From assembly GCA_016212735.1 (NCBI GenBank), contig JACRDZ010000177.1:1-15332 (forward strand): a stretch of 15,332 nt of DNA, given 5' to 3'. Source of the DNA: Candidatus Firestoneibacteriota bacterium. Its GTDB lineage: Bacteria; JACRDZ01. Under the pieces are notes generated by a model, which was not told the DNA's origin, ran no database searches, and saw only the letters and a program-made list of their open reading frames with translations. The translations under genes and the position numbers were made by a program. Positions 169-10,251 of this stretch are shown one piece after another; the first letter of the stretch is position 1, and each line of letters starts with the position of its first letter.

Positions 169-3100
169 TTATCTGTGGATAATTTTCAATACATTATTTT
201 TTACAGCAACTCTACCTTCTTTTGTATCTACAATACTTATATTATATGCTCCTGGAGAAATATTATCTGGGACATCGAAACTTAAACTATTTTCACTTTG
301 ATCAAATATCTTATTTATTATTATCGGTAAATAATAAACATTCAAACCAAAATTATTATCAGCAATATAAACTTTTTTATTATCAATATATATGTTATAA
401 GATGTTCCCAATGTGTTGTAATTAGCTATAATCATAGGATTTTGCGGATTACTTATATCAATAAAATATACACCAGATGAACCGCATGCCAGTATTGCAA
501 TATTTCCATCTATTTTTATTCCATTAGCATATCCTTCTGTTTTACACGAAGATATAAATTTAGGATCACTCTTATTTGATATATCAATAATAGTTAATCC
601 CATATCATTTGCAGCAATATATGCATAGTTACCTTTTATCTCCACATCATTAGCATATCCTTTTGTACTTGTGCTTCCTATCTCTTTTACTAAAATAGGA
701 TTAGAAATATCTGCAATAAATAGACCTTTGGAATAGTCAGCAACATAAGCATAGTTATCCTGTATAAATGTTTGATAAGCTTTATCTTTGGTTTTAAAAG
801 ATCCTAATATTTTAATATCCCTTGGATCTTTGATATCCACTATATACACCCCCTCATCCACGCAGGAAATATAAGCTTTATTTTTATTAATACATATATT
901 GTATGCATCTCCAAGAGGCATAGGCAGCTTACTTGTCAGAGACGGTTTTTTTGAATCTTCCAATGAAAAAATTTGTAATCCTTCATTTCCAGTAGTAATG
1001 TAAGCAAAATTATCTTTTATTTCTATACCCATTGGTTTACCTGATAAAGGGATTACTCCTTCTACATTGAACCTTGGATTATTAGTATTTACTATAACTA
1101 GACCTTTGTTCTGGTCAAGTACATAACATAAATCTTTATATGTTGCCATATCAATTGCTCTGTCAGGATTATTAGAAAAACCAACCTGCATAGGATTTAA
1201 CGGAGAGCTTATATCAACTATATCTAACCCGGATTTTGAGCTGGCCAAATATGCTAGGTTATCCCTGATAGTAATATCATTAACTGTATCTTCCAGTTTA
1301 AAAGAGGCAACAGGATAAGGATTTTCAGGAAATTTTATATCAAAAATATATATACCTTTTTTTTCTGATGTAACATAGGCATATTCCTTTTTTGAATCTA
1401 TAAAAACATTTAATAAATTTGCTTTTAAACTTATTCCCCCCAAGTAAACAGGGTCACCTGGTTTTGTCAAATCTAATATAATAAGACCTCCTTCTCCGCA
1501 TGCTGCAAATAAATAATTATCAACAATTTGCAAAGCATTTGCTGACCCCGATGTCTGGTAAATAGATTTAAGTTTGGGTTTTTCAGGGGTAGTAATATCG
1601 AGTATAACTATTCCATCACCTTTAAGTACACCTATATCCCCGCTTGCCAGATACATATAATTATCTTTTATTGCAATACTATATATTGCTCCAATTGTCT
1701 TAAAAGTTGCAATTTGTATTAAGTTATATGGATTTTCCATAAAATATATACTGAAGCCTGCTTTGCCATCAGCCACATAGAGATATTGGTTTTTTATTAA
1801 AACATCATATGCATATCCAGGTGTATCACACGACCATATAAATGATGGTATATGCGGATTACTATTATCTAATACCTGTATTCCATATTCACCATCCGCA
1901 ATATAAGCCCAACTGTGAAATAATGCTAAACCTGTTGCAATTCCAGGAGTATCACGTCTTCCTACAATAGCAGGTGCAATTGGATTACTTATGTCTATAA
2001 CTGTAAATCCTGCCAATTCGTCAGCAATAAAACAATAATTCTGAGCTGCAAAAACAGCTAATGCACTGCCTGGAGTATCGCAATTACTAACGCGATATGG
2101 GCCATTTCCCCATAAAACTACTTTTTCAGCTTTATCAAGTTTTTTCCCAGCAACAACAATGTTTCTTTTATTATCATCATCAAAATAACTTTCTGGTGAA
2201 ATACTGTCTATATTTAATGTTTTTTCTACAATACAAAATCCTTTTTTATATGTTGTACTCTGTTCATCAGGATTTGTTACTGTAATATCATAACAGCCAA
2301 CAGGGAAATCTCCATGATAAGTTGCCTTCAATTTTGCCTGTGAAAATATTTCAATATTTGTACATAGTGTGGTATCAACCTTTACAATTGCTCCTGGAAC
2401 GAAATTTTCACCAATTATAGTAATCTGTCTAGTGGAACCTATAACTACTTGAGCAGGATTTATAAAATTAATTTTTGGCTGAGGTTTTGTAATTTTAATT
2501 GCATTATTTGCAATTCCAATTTCTTTTGTTACCTGATTTATAATTTGTAAATCATATGTATCAAAAGGAATTCCCTCTGAAATAGCAATTACAATAAGAG
2601 CGTTATCTCCATATCTGTAATTTTTTATTTTCCACATTGTTGCAAGAACTTGAAAATCACCTGCAAGATCAATAACATACAAATTTTCATTTGAAGCAAT
2701 CAGTTTATTCAGCTTTGAATCTGATGCCCATCTTTTAATTGGTTTTGGACTGCTTATATTTGATACATCAAACATCACTATTTCGTTGTTAGACATGGAA
2801 TAAAGATAATTATTATTTTTATATAAATATTTAATCTCGTTTGGAATATCTATTTTTAGTAAAAAAACCGCATTATTCTTATTAGAACTCTCATATATTT
2901 GAATCCCTTCTTTTCCTGCAGCCAAAAATATAAAATTATTTTCAGCATATAAAGAACTCACAAATCCTGATACTTTAAAATTGTTAATTAGTAATGGAGT
3001 TTGAGGATTATTATTGTCAAATATAAAAAAACCATTTTTTCCGCTGGCAATATAAAGATATTTATCGACAATCATAAAATCATAAGCTTTAACTGAATTA

Positions 3101-3699
3101 AACTGCCATATAATCTGAGGCTTTTCAGGTTTTTTAACACTCGCTATTTGTGCATCTTTTTTTTCATATCCAATATAAACCAACTCATTAAAAGCATATA
3201 GAGATATAGGACGTTCAGGTAAAAATAATTCTCCAATTATATGTGGTAAAGATATATTTTTTATATCTACAATATATAATTTGCTGTTATCCGTTAAATA
3301 AGCATAATTACCATTAATAAATACTTTGTTTATTACTGTATTAGTTGTTAAAGATCCGATAAATCTCATAGGTTGAAATGCATCTTTAATTTGTAAAATA
3401 ACAAATCCCTTTATACCGCATGCAAGAAAAACATAGTCATTGATTAAATAAATATCTTCTATTGATTGTATAGAATTCCATGCAGATATTTTTGTCATTT
3501 TATTGCTTGAAAGAAAAATATTCAGGTCTTTTTCAAAATTTTTTCCAACTACAGTTACTTTAGCAGGGTCACCATAAGGTATAGATGAAGGTTCTATATA
3601 ATATATCTCTGGAGGAATAGCAGTAATATTACATTTTAAACTTATAAATATGATTATAAAAATGAAATAATATTTAATTATTTTATTTTTGCTTTTCAT
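169..3699 (-). CDS. Exported LVIVD beta-propeller / IPT-TIG domain protein
   Basis: A 1176-residue secreted protein of unknown binding role. Residues 1-27 form a signal peptide (basic start, long Ile/Phe core, cleavage near ITA). I count 21 LVIVD-type blades (pattern YAYIA..xGLxIIDISNPxxP): seven at about 75-357 and fourteen at about 538-1125, matching one plus two seven-bladed propellers. TIG-like sequence lies at about 30-72, 365-404, 408-491, 496-535 and 1137-1174. Only 408-491 looks like an uninterrupted TIG domain; the other pieces read as the two halves of TIG domains split by propellers. No membrane anchor or sorting signal is visible at the C terminus. The frame stays open 50 codons further upstream, but that stretch lacks a signal-peptide layout and overlaps the neighbouring promoter, so the ATG at 3699 is chosen. 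It is divergent from the thioredoxin-thiG pair. LVIVD and TIG domains occur in surface adhesion or binding proteins; a binding role here is inference. Confidence 0.85.
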   Translation of the reverse strand: MKSKNKIIKYYFIFIIIFISLKCNITAIPPEIYYIEPSSIPYGDPAKVTVVGKNFEKDLNIFLSSNKMTKISAWNSIQSIEDIYLINDYVFLACGIKGFVILQIKDAFQPMRFIGSLTTNTVINKVFINGNYAYLTDNSKLYIVDIKNISLPHIIGELFLPERPISLYAFNELVYIGYEKKDAQIASVKKPEKPQIIWQFNSVKAYDFMIVDKYLYIASGKNGFFIFDNNNPQTPLLINNFKVSGFVSSLYAENNFIFLAAGKEGIQIYESSNKNNAVFLLKIDIPNEIKYLYKNNNYLYSMSNNEIVMFDVSNISSPKPIKRWASDSKLNKLIASNENLYVIDLAGDFQVLATMWKIKNYRYGDNALIVIAISEGIPFDTYDLQIINQVTKEIGIANNAIKITKPQPKINFINPAQVVIGSTRQITIIGENFVPGAIVKVDTTLCTNIEIFSQAKLKATYHGDFPVGCYDITVTNPDEQSTTYKKGFCIVEKTLNIDSISPESYFDDDNKRNIVVAGKKLDKAEKVVLWGNGPYRVSNCDTPGSALAVFAAQNYCFIADELAGFTVIDISNPIAPAIVGRRDTPGIATGLALFHSWAYIADGEYGIQVLDNSNPHIPSFIWSCDTPGYAYDVLIKNQYLYVADGKAGFSIYFMENPYNLIQIATFKTIGAIYSIAIKDNYMYLASGDIGVLKGDGIVILDITTPEKPKLKSIYQTSGSANALQIVDNYLFAACGEGGLIILDLTKPGDPVYLGGISLKANLLNVFIDSKKEYAYVTSEKKGIYIFDIKFPENPYPVASFKLEDTVNDITIRDNLAYLASSKSGLDIVDISSPLNPMQVGFSNNPDRAIDMATYKDLCYVLDQNKGLVIVNTNNPRFNVEGVIPLSGKPMGIEIKDNFAYITTGNEGLQIFSLEDSKKPSLTSKLPMPLGDAYNICINKNKAYISCVDEGVYIVDIKDPRDIKILGSFKTKDKAYQTFIQDNYAYVADYSKGLFIADISNPILVKEIGSTSTKGYANDVEIKGNYAYIAANDMGLTIIDISNKSDPKFISSCKTEGYANGIKIDGNIAILACGSSGVYFIDISNPQNPMIIANYNTLGTSYNIYIDNKKVYIADNNFGLNVYYLPIIINKIFDQSENSLSFDVPDNISPGAYNISIVDTKEGRVAVKNNVLKIIHR

Positions 3700-6540: not shown

Positions 6541-6867
6541 TTATTCTATATTTGCAGCAACAACAGATGCTAGTTGCATCATATCAATTGTTTCGCCTTC
6601 TTTTATATTTGTTAGGTCAGTAAGTTTTCCTGATTTGCTTGTAGATTTGGTATTTTTAAATATCGGAAGCAATTTAGCATCAGTCACAATAAATTTACCT
6701 GCGTTTTCCGGCTTTCCATTCTTAGTTTTGGCTTGAAGTTTATTTTCTTTTATATAGTCCCATAGTTTTTTTGTTATCTCTGTTCTAGGAAGTTCAGTTG
6801 CTCCTAAAAATTCTGCTAAATTTTTTTTCAATTTTACTGCCTTATTCAATCCTTTTGATTCTGTCAT
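6541..6867 (-). CDS. SWIB/MDM2-domain protein
   Basis: A 108-residue protein made almost entirely of one SWIB domain. A basic N terminus (1-15) is followed by LAEFLGATELPRTEITKKLW (17-36) and DYIKENKLQ (37-45), the helix pair that opens the SWIB fold, then VTDAKLLPIF (61-70) and the closing helix MMQLASVVAANIE (96-108). A lysine/serine/threonine-rich loop at 71-92 is longer than I expect in short bacterial SWIB proteins. In eukaryotes the domain occurs in SWI/SNF chromatin complexes, and in Chlamydia it exists as a small protein and as a fusion to topoisomerase I, so a DNA-associated role is plausible but not shown. The start has AAAGGGG just before it. It is a single-gene unit with its own promoter. 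Confidence 0.88.
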   Translation of the reverse strand: MTESKGLNKAVKLKKNLAEFLGATELPRTEITKKLWDYIKENKLQAKTKNGKPENAGKFIVTDAKLLPIFKNTKSTSKSGKLTDLTNIKEGETIDMMQLASVVAANIE

Positions 6868-7965: not shown

Positions 7966-8436
7966 TTAGTTCTTTTCAATTAAATTTCCCAGAAAAGCAT
8001 TTGTATATTTGAAATTATTTTTTTTAATCTCGTTTATAAAAATATTCATTTTTTCCAATGAAACTGAATTAATTTTGTAATCATTGGATTTAAGAGTATT
8101 TGTTCCGTCATAATATGTAAATGGATTAATTTGTTCTATTTTAGGGATTAGATTTTTATTATTAATAACGAAATCCAGACTTTCTTTAAAATCTTCATCA
8201 GTTTCTCCTGGATATCCTGTAATTAAGCTGATACCAAAAAATAAACCAGTATCATTCAGCTTTTGAAAAAAAATCTGTGCTTCTTCTTTTGTAAATCCTT
8301 TATTCATGTGTTTTAGTGTATTATTACATCCGGATTCCAATCCTATAAATAAGTTGTAACATCCGCTTTTTTTTATTTTATCGAATATATTTCTATCCAT
8401 ATCATTCCGTACAGCTATTTGTGCTTCCCAATTACA
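7966..8436 (-). pseudogene. C-terminal fragment of a B12-binding-type radical-SAM gene
   Basis: This is the back half of a radical-SAM protein. From the first ATG (8400) it encodes 144 residues (MDRNIFDKIKKSGCYNLFIG, then LESG and ITGYPGETDEDF), the downstream strands of the SAM barrel. The frame stays open above the ATG to a TGA at 8437-8439, and those codons also read as conserved protein (WEAQIAVRND before MDRN), so the ATG is an internal methionine, not a true start. The CxxxCxxC cluster motif is absent from this fragment and from its partner upstream. The fragment could be translated but could not be a functional radical-SAM enzyme by itself. A sequencing or assembly error is the main alternative. 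Confidence 0.8.
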
Positions 8437-8714
8437 TCATATTGCAGCATCTTATTAATAGTATTATCAAACTGAGAAGGATAGTCTTGTTGTATTACAG
8501 AAATGATATTTTCCTCTAAAGATTTATTGCAGCTTATAAGCCATGATTTTTTTAATTTACTATGTGCTAAATTATAGTAGTAATTATTTAAATCCAATAT
8601 ATCAACATAAATACCTTTGTTTCTAAGATAGCTTTCTAAATAAGCAATACCAAGAGGAGGCATTTTTGGCCAAAATATTGGAAGAATACATAGTAATACT
8701 TTATTATAGAACAT
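8415..8714 (-). pseudogene. N-terminal fragment of the same B12-binding-type radical-SAM gene
   Basis: Ninety-nine residues that begin like a B12-binding radical-SAM protein: KVLLCILPIFWPKMPPLGIA (5-24), then YLESYLRNKGIYVDILDLNN (25-44), the start of the cobalamin-binding-type Rossmann domain. The DxHxxG cobalamin motif is not present, which is common in this superfamily. The frame runs through YDVIG (92-96) and then enters KHK and a TAG stop within the first codons of the C-terminal fragment's reading frame. The two fragments overlap in different frames at 8415-8436. Normal members have several hundred residues between these points, so the middle, with the iron-sulfur motif, is missing. The ATG at 8714 has GGA nine bases upstream. 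Confidence 0.8.
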
Positions 8715-9858: not shown

Positions 9859-10251
9859 TTATTCTATATGCAAATGCAATAAATATTTTTTTCTTAATTC
9901 TTTTTTAGCAGATATAATTTTTTTATTTTTTAACATTTCTTCTTTGGCCTTTTTTGATTTTTTCCTTTTCTGCCGTTTAAGTTTTTCGATTAATTGCTGT
10001 TTTTCTTTTTTTTCATTAAATAATCTATTTTCTATTTTTTTTATCAGAAGACGCTTTGCAATTATTCTATTTAAACTCTGTTTTCGTTCTTCCTGCACTT
10101 TTACTTTAATTCCAGTAGGTATATGTTCAAGGAATACACATGTTGAAGTTTTATTCACATTCTGCCCTCCTTTGCCCTGAGAACAAATAAATTTTTCAAC
10201 AATATCCTTTTCCATAATTCCCAGTTCTTCCATTTGTTTCTTGATTAACAT
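9859..10251 (-). CDS. Small GGQ release-factor-like protein (ribosome rescue type)
   Basis: A 130-residue protein containing only the catalytic RF-1 domain. SQGKGGQNVNKTST (24-37) carries the GGQ motif (28-30) that triggers hydrolysis of peptidyl-tRNA in the ribosome, and is followed by HIPTGIKVKVQEERKQSLNR, the domain's other signature. There is no codon-recognition domain. The C-terminal third is very basic (runs of Lys and Arg, 82-125), like the tail that ArfB/YaeJ threads into the empty mRNA channel of stalled ribosomes. ArfB or a C12orf65/MTRFR-type peptidyl-tRNA hydrolase is therefore the likely role, though the subfamily is not fixed by this sequence. The start has AGGA seven bases upstream. 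It lies 27 bases behind the membrane-protein gene and is probably co-transcribed with it. Confidence 0.88.
   Translation of the reverse strand: MLIKKQMEELGIMEKDIVEKFICSQGKGGQNVNKTSTCVFLEHIPTGIKVKVQEERKQSLNRIIAKRLLIKKIENRLFNEKKEKQQLIEKLKRQKRKKSKKAKEEMLKNKKIISAKKELRKKYLLHLHIE

What the first reader, a model, noticed from the sequence alone, without database searches (positions are those of the whole stretch)
169..3699. Seven-bladed LVIVD propellers apparently inserted into the same loop of TIG domains
Seen: 21 LVIVD-type blades fall into groups of 7 and 14. The TIG-like sequence before the first group (residues about 30-72) ends at the mid-domain strand, and the matching second half (about 365-404, with the GIPFDTYDLQIINQV pattern) comes after the group. 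The same happens around the 14-blade group (first half 496-535, second half 1137-1174, with DNISPGAYNISIVD). A whole TIG domain (408-491) lies between. Known: the usual TIG order is an IxPxxG strand, a GxxF strand, then a PxGxYDxxVxN strand. Inference: one TIG domain carries one propeller and another carries two, in the same loop, giving a rod of TIG modules with propeller heads. The usual arrangement I know of is domains in tandem, not nested.
Basis: partly seen in the sequence, partly recalled or inferred. Interest (0 to 1): 0.72.

Follow-up and report, generated by a model that had tools for sequence, protein, structure and literature searches.

The report
Propellers nested inside small TIG domains
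A secreted-looking bacterial protein carries ring-shaped propeller domains threaded into the middle of much smaller immunoglobulin-like domains, and the same arrangement recurs in related and some unrelated bacterial proteins, at the same point and nearly always with 7, 14 or 21 blades.

Summary
The 1176-residue protein (window 172-3699, minus strand) reads TIG1[7 LVIVD blades] - intact TIG2 - TIG3[14 LVIVD blades], both arrays cutting the TIG at the same alignment position. An AlphaFold2 model of residues 495-1176 (pLDDT 92.3, pTM 0.89) gives two tandem rings matching seven-bladed WD40 domains, with both TIG halves confident. An earlier shallow model failed on every TIG and matched eight-bladed rings. 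The architecture recurs: of 287 LVIVD arrays examined, 27 carry both halves, 2 only the first, 3 only the second, 255 neither (its profiles were partly trained on these proteins). A held-out test also pairs the halves (p=2.2e-4; 0 of 182 arrays with halves on the wrong sides). In 25 of 27 the insert is 7, 14 or 21 blade lengths; two in one draft genome are 9.4 and 11.4. Ten literature searches showed no description of it. Likely role, inferred only: a secreted binding protein in which a small TIG clasps propeller heads. New variant of a known kind (domain insertion).

The parts
169..3699 (-). Gene for the 1176-aa nested TIG/LVIVD protein (stop codon included; an upstream in-frame start gives the 1200-aa version P0002)
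3619..3699 (-). Residues 1-27, hydrophobic export signal (read by eye; the lipobox-like Cys is not kept in orthologue P0004)
3496..3615 (-). TIG1, first half (residues 29-68)
2638..3495 (-). Propeller A, residues 69-354: starter strand d, six full blades, strands a-c of the seventh (strand assignment by eye)
2488..2637 (-). TIG1, second half (residues 355-404)
2224..2484 (-). TIG2, intact (residues 406-492)
2095..2217 (-). TIG3, first half (residues 495-535)
1204..2094 (-). Propeller B, residues about 536-832 (model residues 39-338)
331..1203 (-). Propeller C, residues about 833-1123 (model residues 341-631)
178..330 (-). TIG3, second half (residues 1124-1174)

Best explanation
A secreted protein in which two small TIG (immunoglobulin-like) domains are each interrupted, after their third main strand, by whole seven-bladed LVIVD propellers: one in TIG1, two in tandem in TIG3, with an uninterrupted TIG2 between. 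The chain leaves the TIG straight into the outer (d) strand of a propeller, runs round, and re-enters the TIG after strand c of the last blade, so the usual 'velcro' closure of a propeller sits next to the TIG that hosts it. Shown by computation: the split, its shared position, insert lengths that fit whole rings, and recurrence. Inferred: the TIG acts as a clasp that holds the closure and sets each propeller sideways on a short TIG stalk, and the propellers are the binding surfaces, most likely for a protein or glycan outside the cell.
For: Full-length layout kept in two orthologues. Joined halves match TIG as one domain in relatives, and the empty-site profile matches intact TIG2 contiguously. 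Deep model pLDDT 92.3, pTM 0.89, with two rings. Both halves flank 27 of 287 arrays, first only 2, second only 3, neither 255 (seeds overlap, and the proteins are the best listed hits of two capped searches plus 12 frames from genomes). Held-out profiles, 182 arrays with room: both 3, first only 5, second only 1, neither 173 at E<0.01, p=2.2e-4; at E<1 5/4/3/170, p=4.2e-6; wrong-side control 0 of 182. Inserts span 7, 14 or 21 blade lengths in 25 of 27 arrays, 19 of 21 after dropping six rows that I judged orthologous. Twelve of the 14 frames with Pfam LVIVD matches in three genomes of the Desantisbacteria phylum have both halves. In L049, L050 and L055 the TIG profiles match only the first half, ending at position 37-40.
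Against: The window's own halves score weakly against Pfam TIG. With the halves of P0126 swapped, Pfam TIG still scores 40.5 bits as two stretches, against 49.7 in the right order, so joining adds only about 9 bits there. The shallow model had all TIG regions under pLDDT 50 and matched eight-bladed rings over residues 797-1126; the deep model contradicts it, but both are predictions. Some rows run from residue 28-34 to 632 with about 275-285 aligned, so which ring the starter strand closes is not fully settled. Two paralogues have 9.4 and 11.4 blade lengths. Several held-out arrays show only one half by profile. No neighbour gene supports a function, and no solved structure is a sequence relative.
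Confidence: 0.87

Rival explanations
1. The TIG-like stretches are separate, degenerate or half domains next to LVIVD arrays in ordinary tandem order, with no shared fold.
For: Pfam sees only the first half in the window's TIG1 and nothing in TIG3; held-out profiles find only one half in several arrays; swapped halves of P0126 still score as TIG in two stretches.
Against: The halves are complementary, first half before and second half after the array (0 of 182 held-out arrays reversed), and join at neighbouring profile positions. Intact TIG2 matches the joined profile in one stretch, and both halves are confident in the deep model.
Confidence: 0.05
2. The 14-blade group closes differently: one 14-bladed ring, or rings of 8 and 6 blades.
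For: The shallow full-length model aligns residues 797-1126 to eight-bladed rings (Tako8, 310 residues, 2.2 A).
Against: That model has pTM 0.41 and gaps of pLDDT under 50 inside the array. The deep model gives two rings that align to seven-bladed domains. Inserts of 7, 14 and 21 blade lengths fit rings of seven, and 146 of 240 LVIVD arrays without TIG halves are 7 or 14 blade lengths long (there is also a small peak of 13 at 22).
Confidence: 0.06
3. The anatomy is as described, but the protein is not a binding or adhesive protein: the propellers are enzymes or periplasmic scaffolds, and the TIG clasp is incidental.
For: Some relatives carry a subtilase or a peptidase C13 match in the same chain, so the module travels with enzymes; the role was not tested here.
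Against: Pfam finds no catalytic domain in the window protein; many listed relatives carry PKD, fibronectin, FlgD-Ig or type IX sorting domains (domain names recalled for most accessions).
Confidence: 0.3
4. TIG1 and TIG3 received their propellers by independent insertions into a favoured loop, rather than by copying one TIG-propeller module.
For: Intact TIG2 sits between them.
Against: Insert point, starter strand and last-blade exit agree between the two and across the relatives aligned, which a copied module explains more simply. Not tested with a tree.
Confidence: 0.15

Closest known systems
LVIVD repeat, Pfam PF08309 (42-residue repeat described from Methanosarcina surface proteins, PMC2447325, abstract seen; predicted as propellers by Adindla 2007, seen only as a citation in PMC3192720)
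   Same: The blades are LVIVD repeats (3e-78), and arrays without TIG halves also peak at 7 and 14 blade lengths.
   Different: Here the arrays lie inside another domain; the parts of PMC2447325 and PMC3192720 that I saw do not mention TIG.
IPT/TIG domain, Pfam PF01833, and NCBIfam NF058597 (choice-of-anchor Z repeat)
   Same: TIG2 is an ordinary member; split domains match as a first half or, joined, as a whole in some relatives.
   Different: The host is cut at about position 40 by 286-910 residues; in the relatives scanned the profiles show the first half only (L049, L050, L055) or no TIG at E 0.001 (L048, P0011, P0020, P0028, P0044, P0146; each scanned with one or both libraries).
Integrin alpha-I domain (PMC12422189, start of abstract in a search listing; PMC3192720, passages)
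   Same: A cell-surface protein with domain nesting that involves a seven-bladed propeller.
   Different: Nesting is the other way round: there the propeller is the host and a von Willebrand A domain is inserted between its blades.
A1-B-A2 domain insertions surveyed in PMC13114784 (abstract, outline and one passage seen)
   Same: The same formal architecture.
   Different: The abstract gives inserts as smaller than hosts (median 115 against 199 residues); here the insert is about 3 to 11 times larger than its host of about 85-90 residues. The words propeller and TIG do not occur in its main text; its supplements were not seen.
Tandem 2x7 WD40 proteins (Aip1 1nr0, Utp21 4nsx)
   Same: Two rings in tandem; both are in the Foldseek list (TMq 0.40 and 0.35).
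   Different: Whole-chain fit is poor (13.7 and 15.7 A), no sequence kinship was found, and as far as I recall no host domain is interrupted in these.

Membership tests
LVIVD repeat (PF08309) | Match above the curated cut-off over the 42-residue repeat | tested here: met
   257.4 bits against 20.2, 13 stretches
LVIVD repeat (PF08309) | Four-stranded blades closing into a propeller | tested here: met
   Deep model, rings 39-338 and 341-631; prediction only
IPT/TIG (PF01833) | Contiguous match above the cut-off (TIG2) | tested here: met
   32.2 bits against 20.9, profile 1-78
IPT/TIG (PF01833) | Split TIG1 and TIG3 of the window, joined, match above the cut-off | tested here: not met
   TIG1 17.1 bits (cut-off 20.9, first half only), TIG3 no hit. 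Orthologues: P0003 TIG1 22.0, P0004 TIG1 21.4 (positions 1-55) and P0004 TIG3 26.7 bits pass, P0003 TIG3 has no hit
IPT/TIG (PF01833) | TIG fold of the split domain seen in coordinates | not testable with these tools
   Model coordinates were not readable, and the fold search was filled by propellers
A1-B-A2 domain insertion | Two parts of one domain flank a complete other domain | tested here: met
Choice-of-anchor B family (TIGR04312) | Score above the family cut-off | tested here: not met
   71.6 bits against 100; of six split-TIG relatives four pass (L055, P0011, P0020, P0044) and two do not
Secreted adhesin or binding protein | Surface location and ligand binding | not testable with these tools
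   Signal-like N-terminus by eye only

The most novel reading that the evidence does not exclude
The split TIG is a general socket: a small immunoglobulin-like clasp into which whole propellers are plugged in units of seven blades. Blades are gained, lost and homogenised, yet selection on ring closure holds the count at 7n, giving bacteria a stock of exchangeable surface recognition heads built from one host domain.
Probability: 0.3. Interest if true: 0.68.

Novelty: new variant of a known kind. Interest (0 to 1): 0.55.

Why it matters
In the relatives scanned, domain profiles draw this host as a truncated TIG or miss it, so an architecture class is easily mis-drawn. It reverses the usual size rule for inserted domains (large insert, tiny host). 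It gives a natural test of whether closing a propeller's ends with a host domain stabilises it, and the 7, 14, 21 series suggests selection on ring closure.

Tried and rejected
A first AlphaFold2 run on the full protein with three sequences failed for every TIG, intact TIG2 included, so it says nothing about the halves; it also matched eight-bladed rings. A homologue search with the TIG part alone found, besides the window's own protein, only two multi-TIG proteins in which no blades were found. Adding intact TIG2 to the alignment for folding did not align across the gap and was dropped. Block duplication: among the eight arrays long enough to test, offset seven blades gives the highest mean likeness in one (L055) and not in the other seven, so expansion by seven-blade blocks is not generally supported. 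The reversed-order empty-site profile also matches tandem-TIG proteins P0122 and P0123 across neighbouring domains, so that control discriminates only on isolated TIG2. Surveys: a scan of species genomes with two peptide patterns from A1 found one orthologue (L001) and one distant LVIVD locus (L002). The model with TIG ends matches through both ends only in G001, G003 and G004 among the rows listed for 98 genomes around G001, and the first-half model only in G004 among the rows listed for 193 genomes around G046; both lists were cut, so weaker cases may be missed. No fold-library match to a TIG was listed; that part was not tested by the search. L017 (an LVIVD frame in G001 without TIG halves by eye) was never scanned; L016 (broken frame) was scanned but has no span. 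A further LVIVD-like frame, G003:C49, was not fetched. No tRNA, and no Rfam family at gathering score, in the window. Literature: ten searches (one search asked only for the organism) and passages or outline of PMC2447325, PMC4882317, PMC3192720, PMC8078820 and PMC13114784; in the listings and passages seen there was no description of a propeller inside a TIG. Subscription papers are mostly not held.
Full report
The observation. The minus strand of window 169-3699 encodes a 1176-residue protein. Pfam finds 13 LVIVD stretches and 2 TIG stretches; nothing in the PDB is a sequence relative at E up to 1. A profile built from relatives finds blades at 82, 124, 167, 205, 249 and 293 in group one, with the truncated seventh seen in orthologue P0003, and 14 blades at 546-1121 in group two. 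By eye each array starts with a lone strand of the d type and ends with a blade that lacks its d strand, which is the usual velcro arrangement of propellers (recalled).

Are the flanking stretches halves of one TIG? Tried alone, three of four first halves match Pfam TIG from position 1 or 2 to 38 or 39, and two of four second halves match from 42 to 73 or 77; the window's TIG3 halves and its TIG1 second half do not match. Joined, three paralogues give one match over most of the profile (3.8e-13, 2e-9 and 6.8e-7), orthologue P0004 TIG3 5.8e-6, P0003 TIG1 1.7e-4, and P0004 TIG1 2.4e-4 (positions 1-55 only); the window's TIG1 matches only in its first half, and its TIG3, like P0003 TIG3, not at all. 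The intact TIG2 scores 1.1e-7. As a control, P0126 halves in swapped order still give 40.5 bits in two stretches against 49.7 in one when joined correctly, so this test alone is modest. A profile of 22 joined half-pairs matches TIG2 of the window and both orthologues in one stretch from profile position 2 or 3 to 90 or 91, at 35.0, 33.9 and 38.4 bits, about the sum of the halves; in reversed order the halves match only separately there.

Recurrence. Among the listed hits (120 of 1100) only two near full-length relatives appear, P0003 (Candidatus Desantisbacteria, 53%) and P0004 (labelled Candidatus Poribacteria, 50-51%). The genome with P0003 (G001) holds paralogues with the same split. Four genomes of its phylum are held; three have LVIVD. 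Of their 14 frames with Pfam LVIVD matches, 12 have both halves (in L048 the first half is weak, E 0.007), one has only the second half, its frame being broken upstream (L016), and one has none by eye (L017). Outside that phylum, profiles trained only on Desantisbacteria and window halves found P0011, P0020 and P0044 with both halves at E<0.01; reading the flanks added P0005 and P0028 (two modules each), P0018, P0138, P0146 and P0167. With these as extra seeds, 287 arrays in a set of 239 protein entries, four duplicates skipped, gave both halves 27, first only 2 (P0026 and P0185, whose sequences end inside or right after the array), second only 3 (P0018 second array, L016, L048), neither 255. 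Because seeds overlap the test set, the fair test is the held-out one: 182 arrays with room for both flanks gave 3 both, 5 first only, 1 second only, 173 neither at E<0.01 (Fisher p=2.2e-4), or 5, 4, 3, 170 at E<1 (p=4.2e-6), and none with the halves on the wrong sides; 87 arrays without room were dropped. All these proteins are top hits of capped searches, so the share of split TIGs among LVIVD proteins at large is not known.

Rings of seven. Between the halves, 25 of 27 arrays span 7, 14 or 21 blade lengths within 0.8 of a blade; without six rows that I judged orthologous, 19 of 21. The exceptions, L013 (9.4) and L015 (11.4), lie in one draft genome; their blades are very alike, so assembly collapse is possible but unproven. 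Of 240 arrays without TIG halves, 44 are estimated at 7 and 102 at 14 blade lengths, with smaller peaks at 13 (22) and 22 (13). Blade likeness peaks at offset seven in one of eight testable arrays, so copying of whole rings is not the general rule.

Structure. The second model, residues 495-1176 with 11 sequences, ten of them with both TIG halves aligned and one (P0185) with the first only, reached pLDDT 92.3 and pTM 0.89 with no residue below 50. VIA-align rows put one ring at model 39-338 (279 residues, 2.0 A, beta-TrCP) and one at 341-631 (277 residues, 2.1 A, alpha-COP), both seven-bladed as I recall. Other rows run from residue 28-34 to about 632 with 275-285 aligned; a range gives only its ends, so it is not fully settled which ring the starter strand closes. 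Both TIG halves carry the strands expected of the fold (ten-residue means 77-94, last two residues 68), but I could not read coordinates, so their pairing is inferred.

Mechanism. The ends of a propeller lie side by side on one blade, so it can enter a loop of another domain without spreading that domain apart; this is established knowledge of the fold. The most likely reading is that the TIG closes over the velcro seam and mounts the propeller sideways. The binding role is inferred from a signal-like N-terminus, from the absence of a catalytic Pfam domain, and from relatives that join the module to PKD, subtilase and dockerin-like domains. Ten neighbouring frames were scanned and show no link, and those beside P0003 look different by eye; the gene lies at the window's edge, so one side is unseen.

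What is known. LVIVD repeats and their propeller fold are known, TIG domains are known, and domain insertion is common: a 2026 survey (PMC13114784, abstract) counts 48,551 events, with inserts usually smaller than hosts. The integrin alpha-I case nests a domain inside a propeller, the reverse of this one. In ten searches of the open library I saw no account of propellers inside TIG domains, and in the relatives scanned the public profiles report the first half only or no TIG. I call it a new variant of a known kind.

Noticed in passing
window 7966-8714, minus strand: Two adjacent frames look like remnants of one B12-binding radical SAM gene: a 99-aa piece with a weak B12-binding match and a 144-aa piece matching only the end of Radical_SAM.
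   Followed up: no
L016 (G001:C304): A further LVIVD gene of G001 is split over two overlapping frames and ends in a TIG second half; probably a frameshift or a sequencing error.
   Followed up: partly
L013, L049, L055: These three have a cysteine in each TIG half near the insertion point, a possible disulfide across the insert; the other seed rows have one or none (alignments).
   Followed up: no
P0011, P0146: These split-TIG proteins carry a peptidase C13 match just above the Pfam cut-off after the module; P0005 and P0138 list the same family.
   Followed up: no
G001:C101:2136-2336 and G003:C13:32911-33027: Further matches to the TIG first half in short frames, the first with part of a blade, the second without one.
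   Followed up: no
P0018 second array, residues about 1320-1650: A second split TIG with about seven blades is visible by eye, but the profiles catch only its second half.
   Followed up: partly
window 9859-10251, minus strand: A 130-aa protein with an RF-1 domain and a GGQ motif, possibly a ribosome-rescue factor.
   Followed up: no
window 6541-6867, minus strand: A short protein with a SWIB/MDM2 domain, uncommon in bacteria as far as I recall.
   Followed up: no
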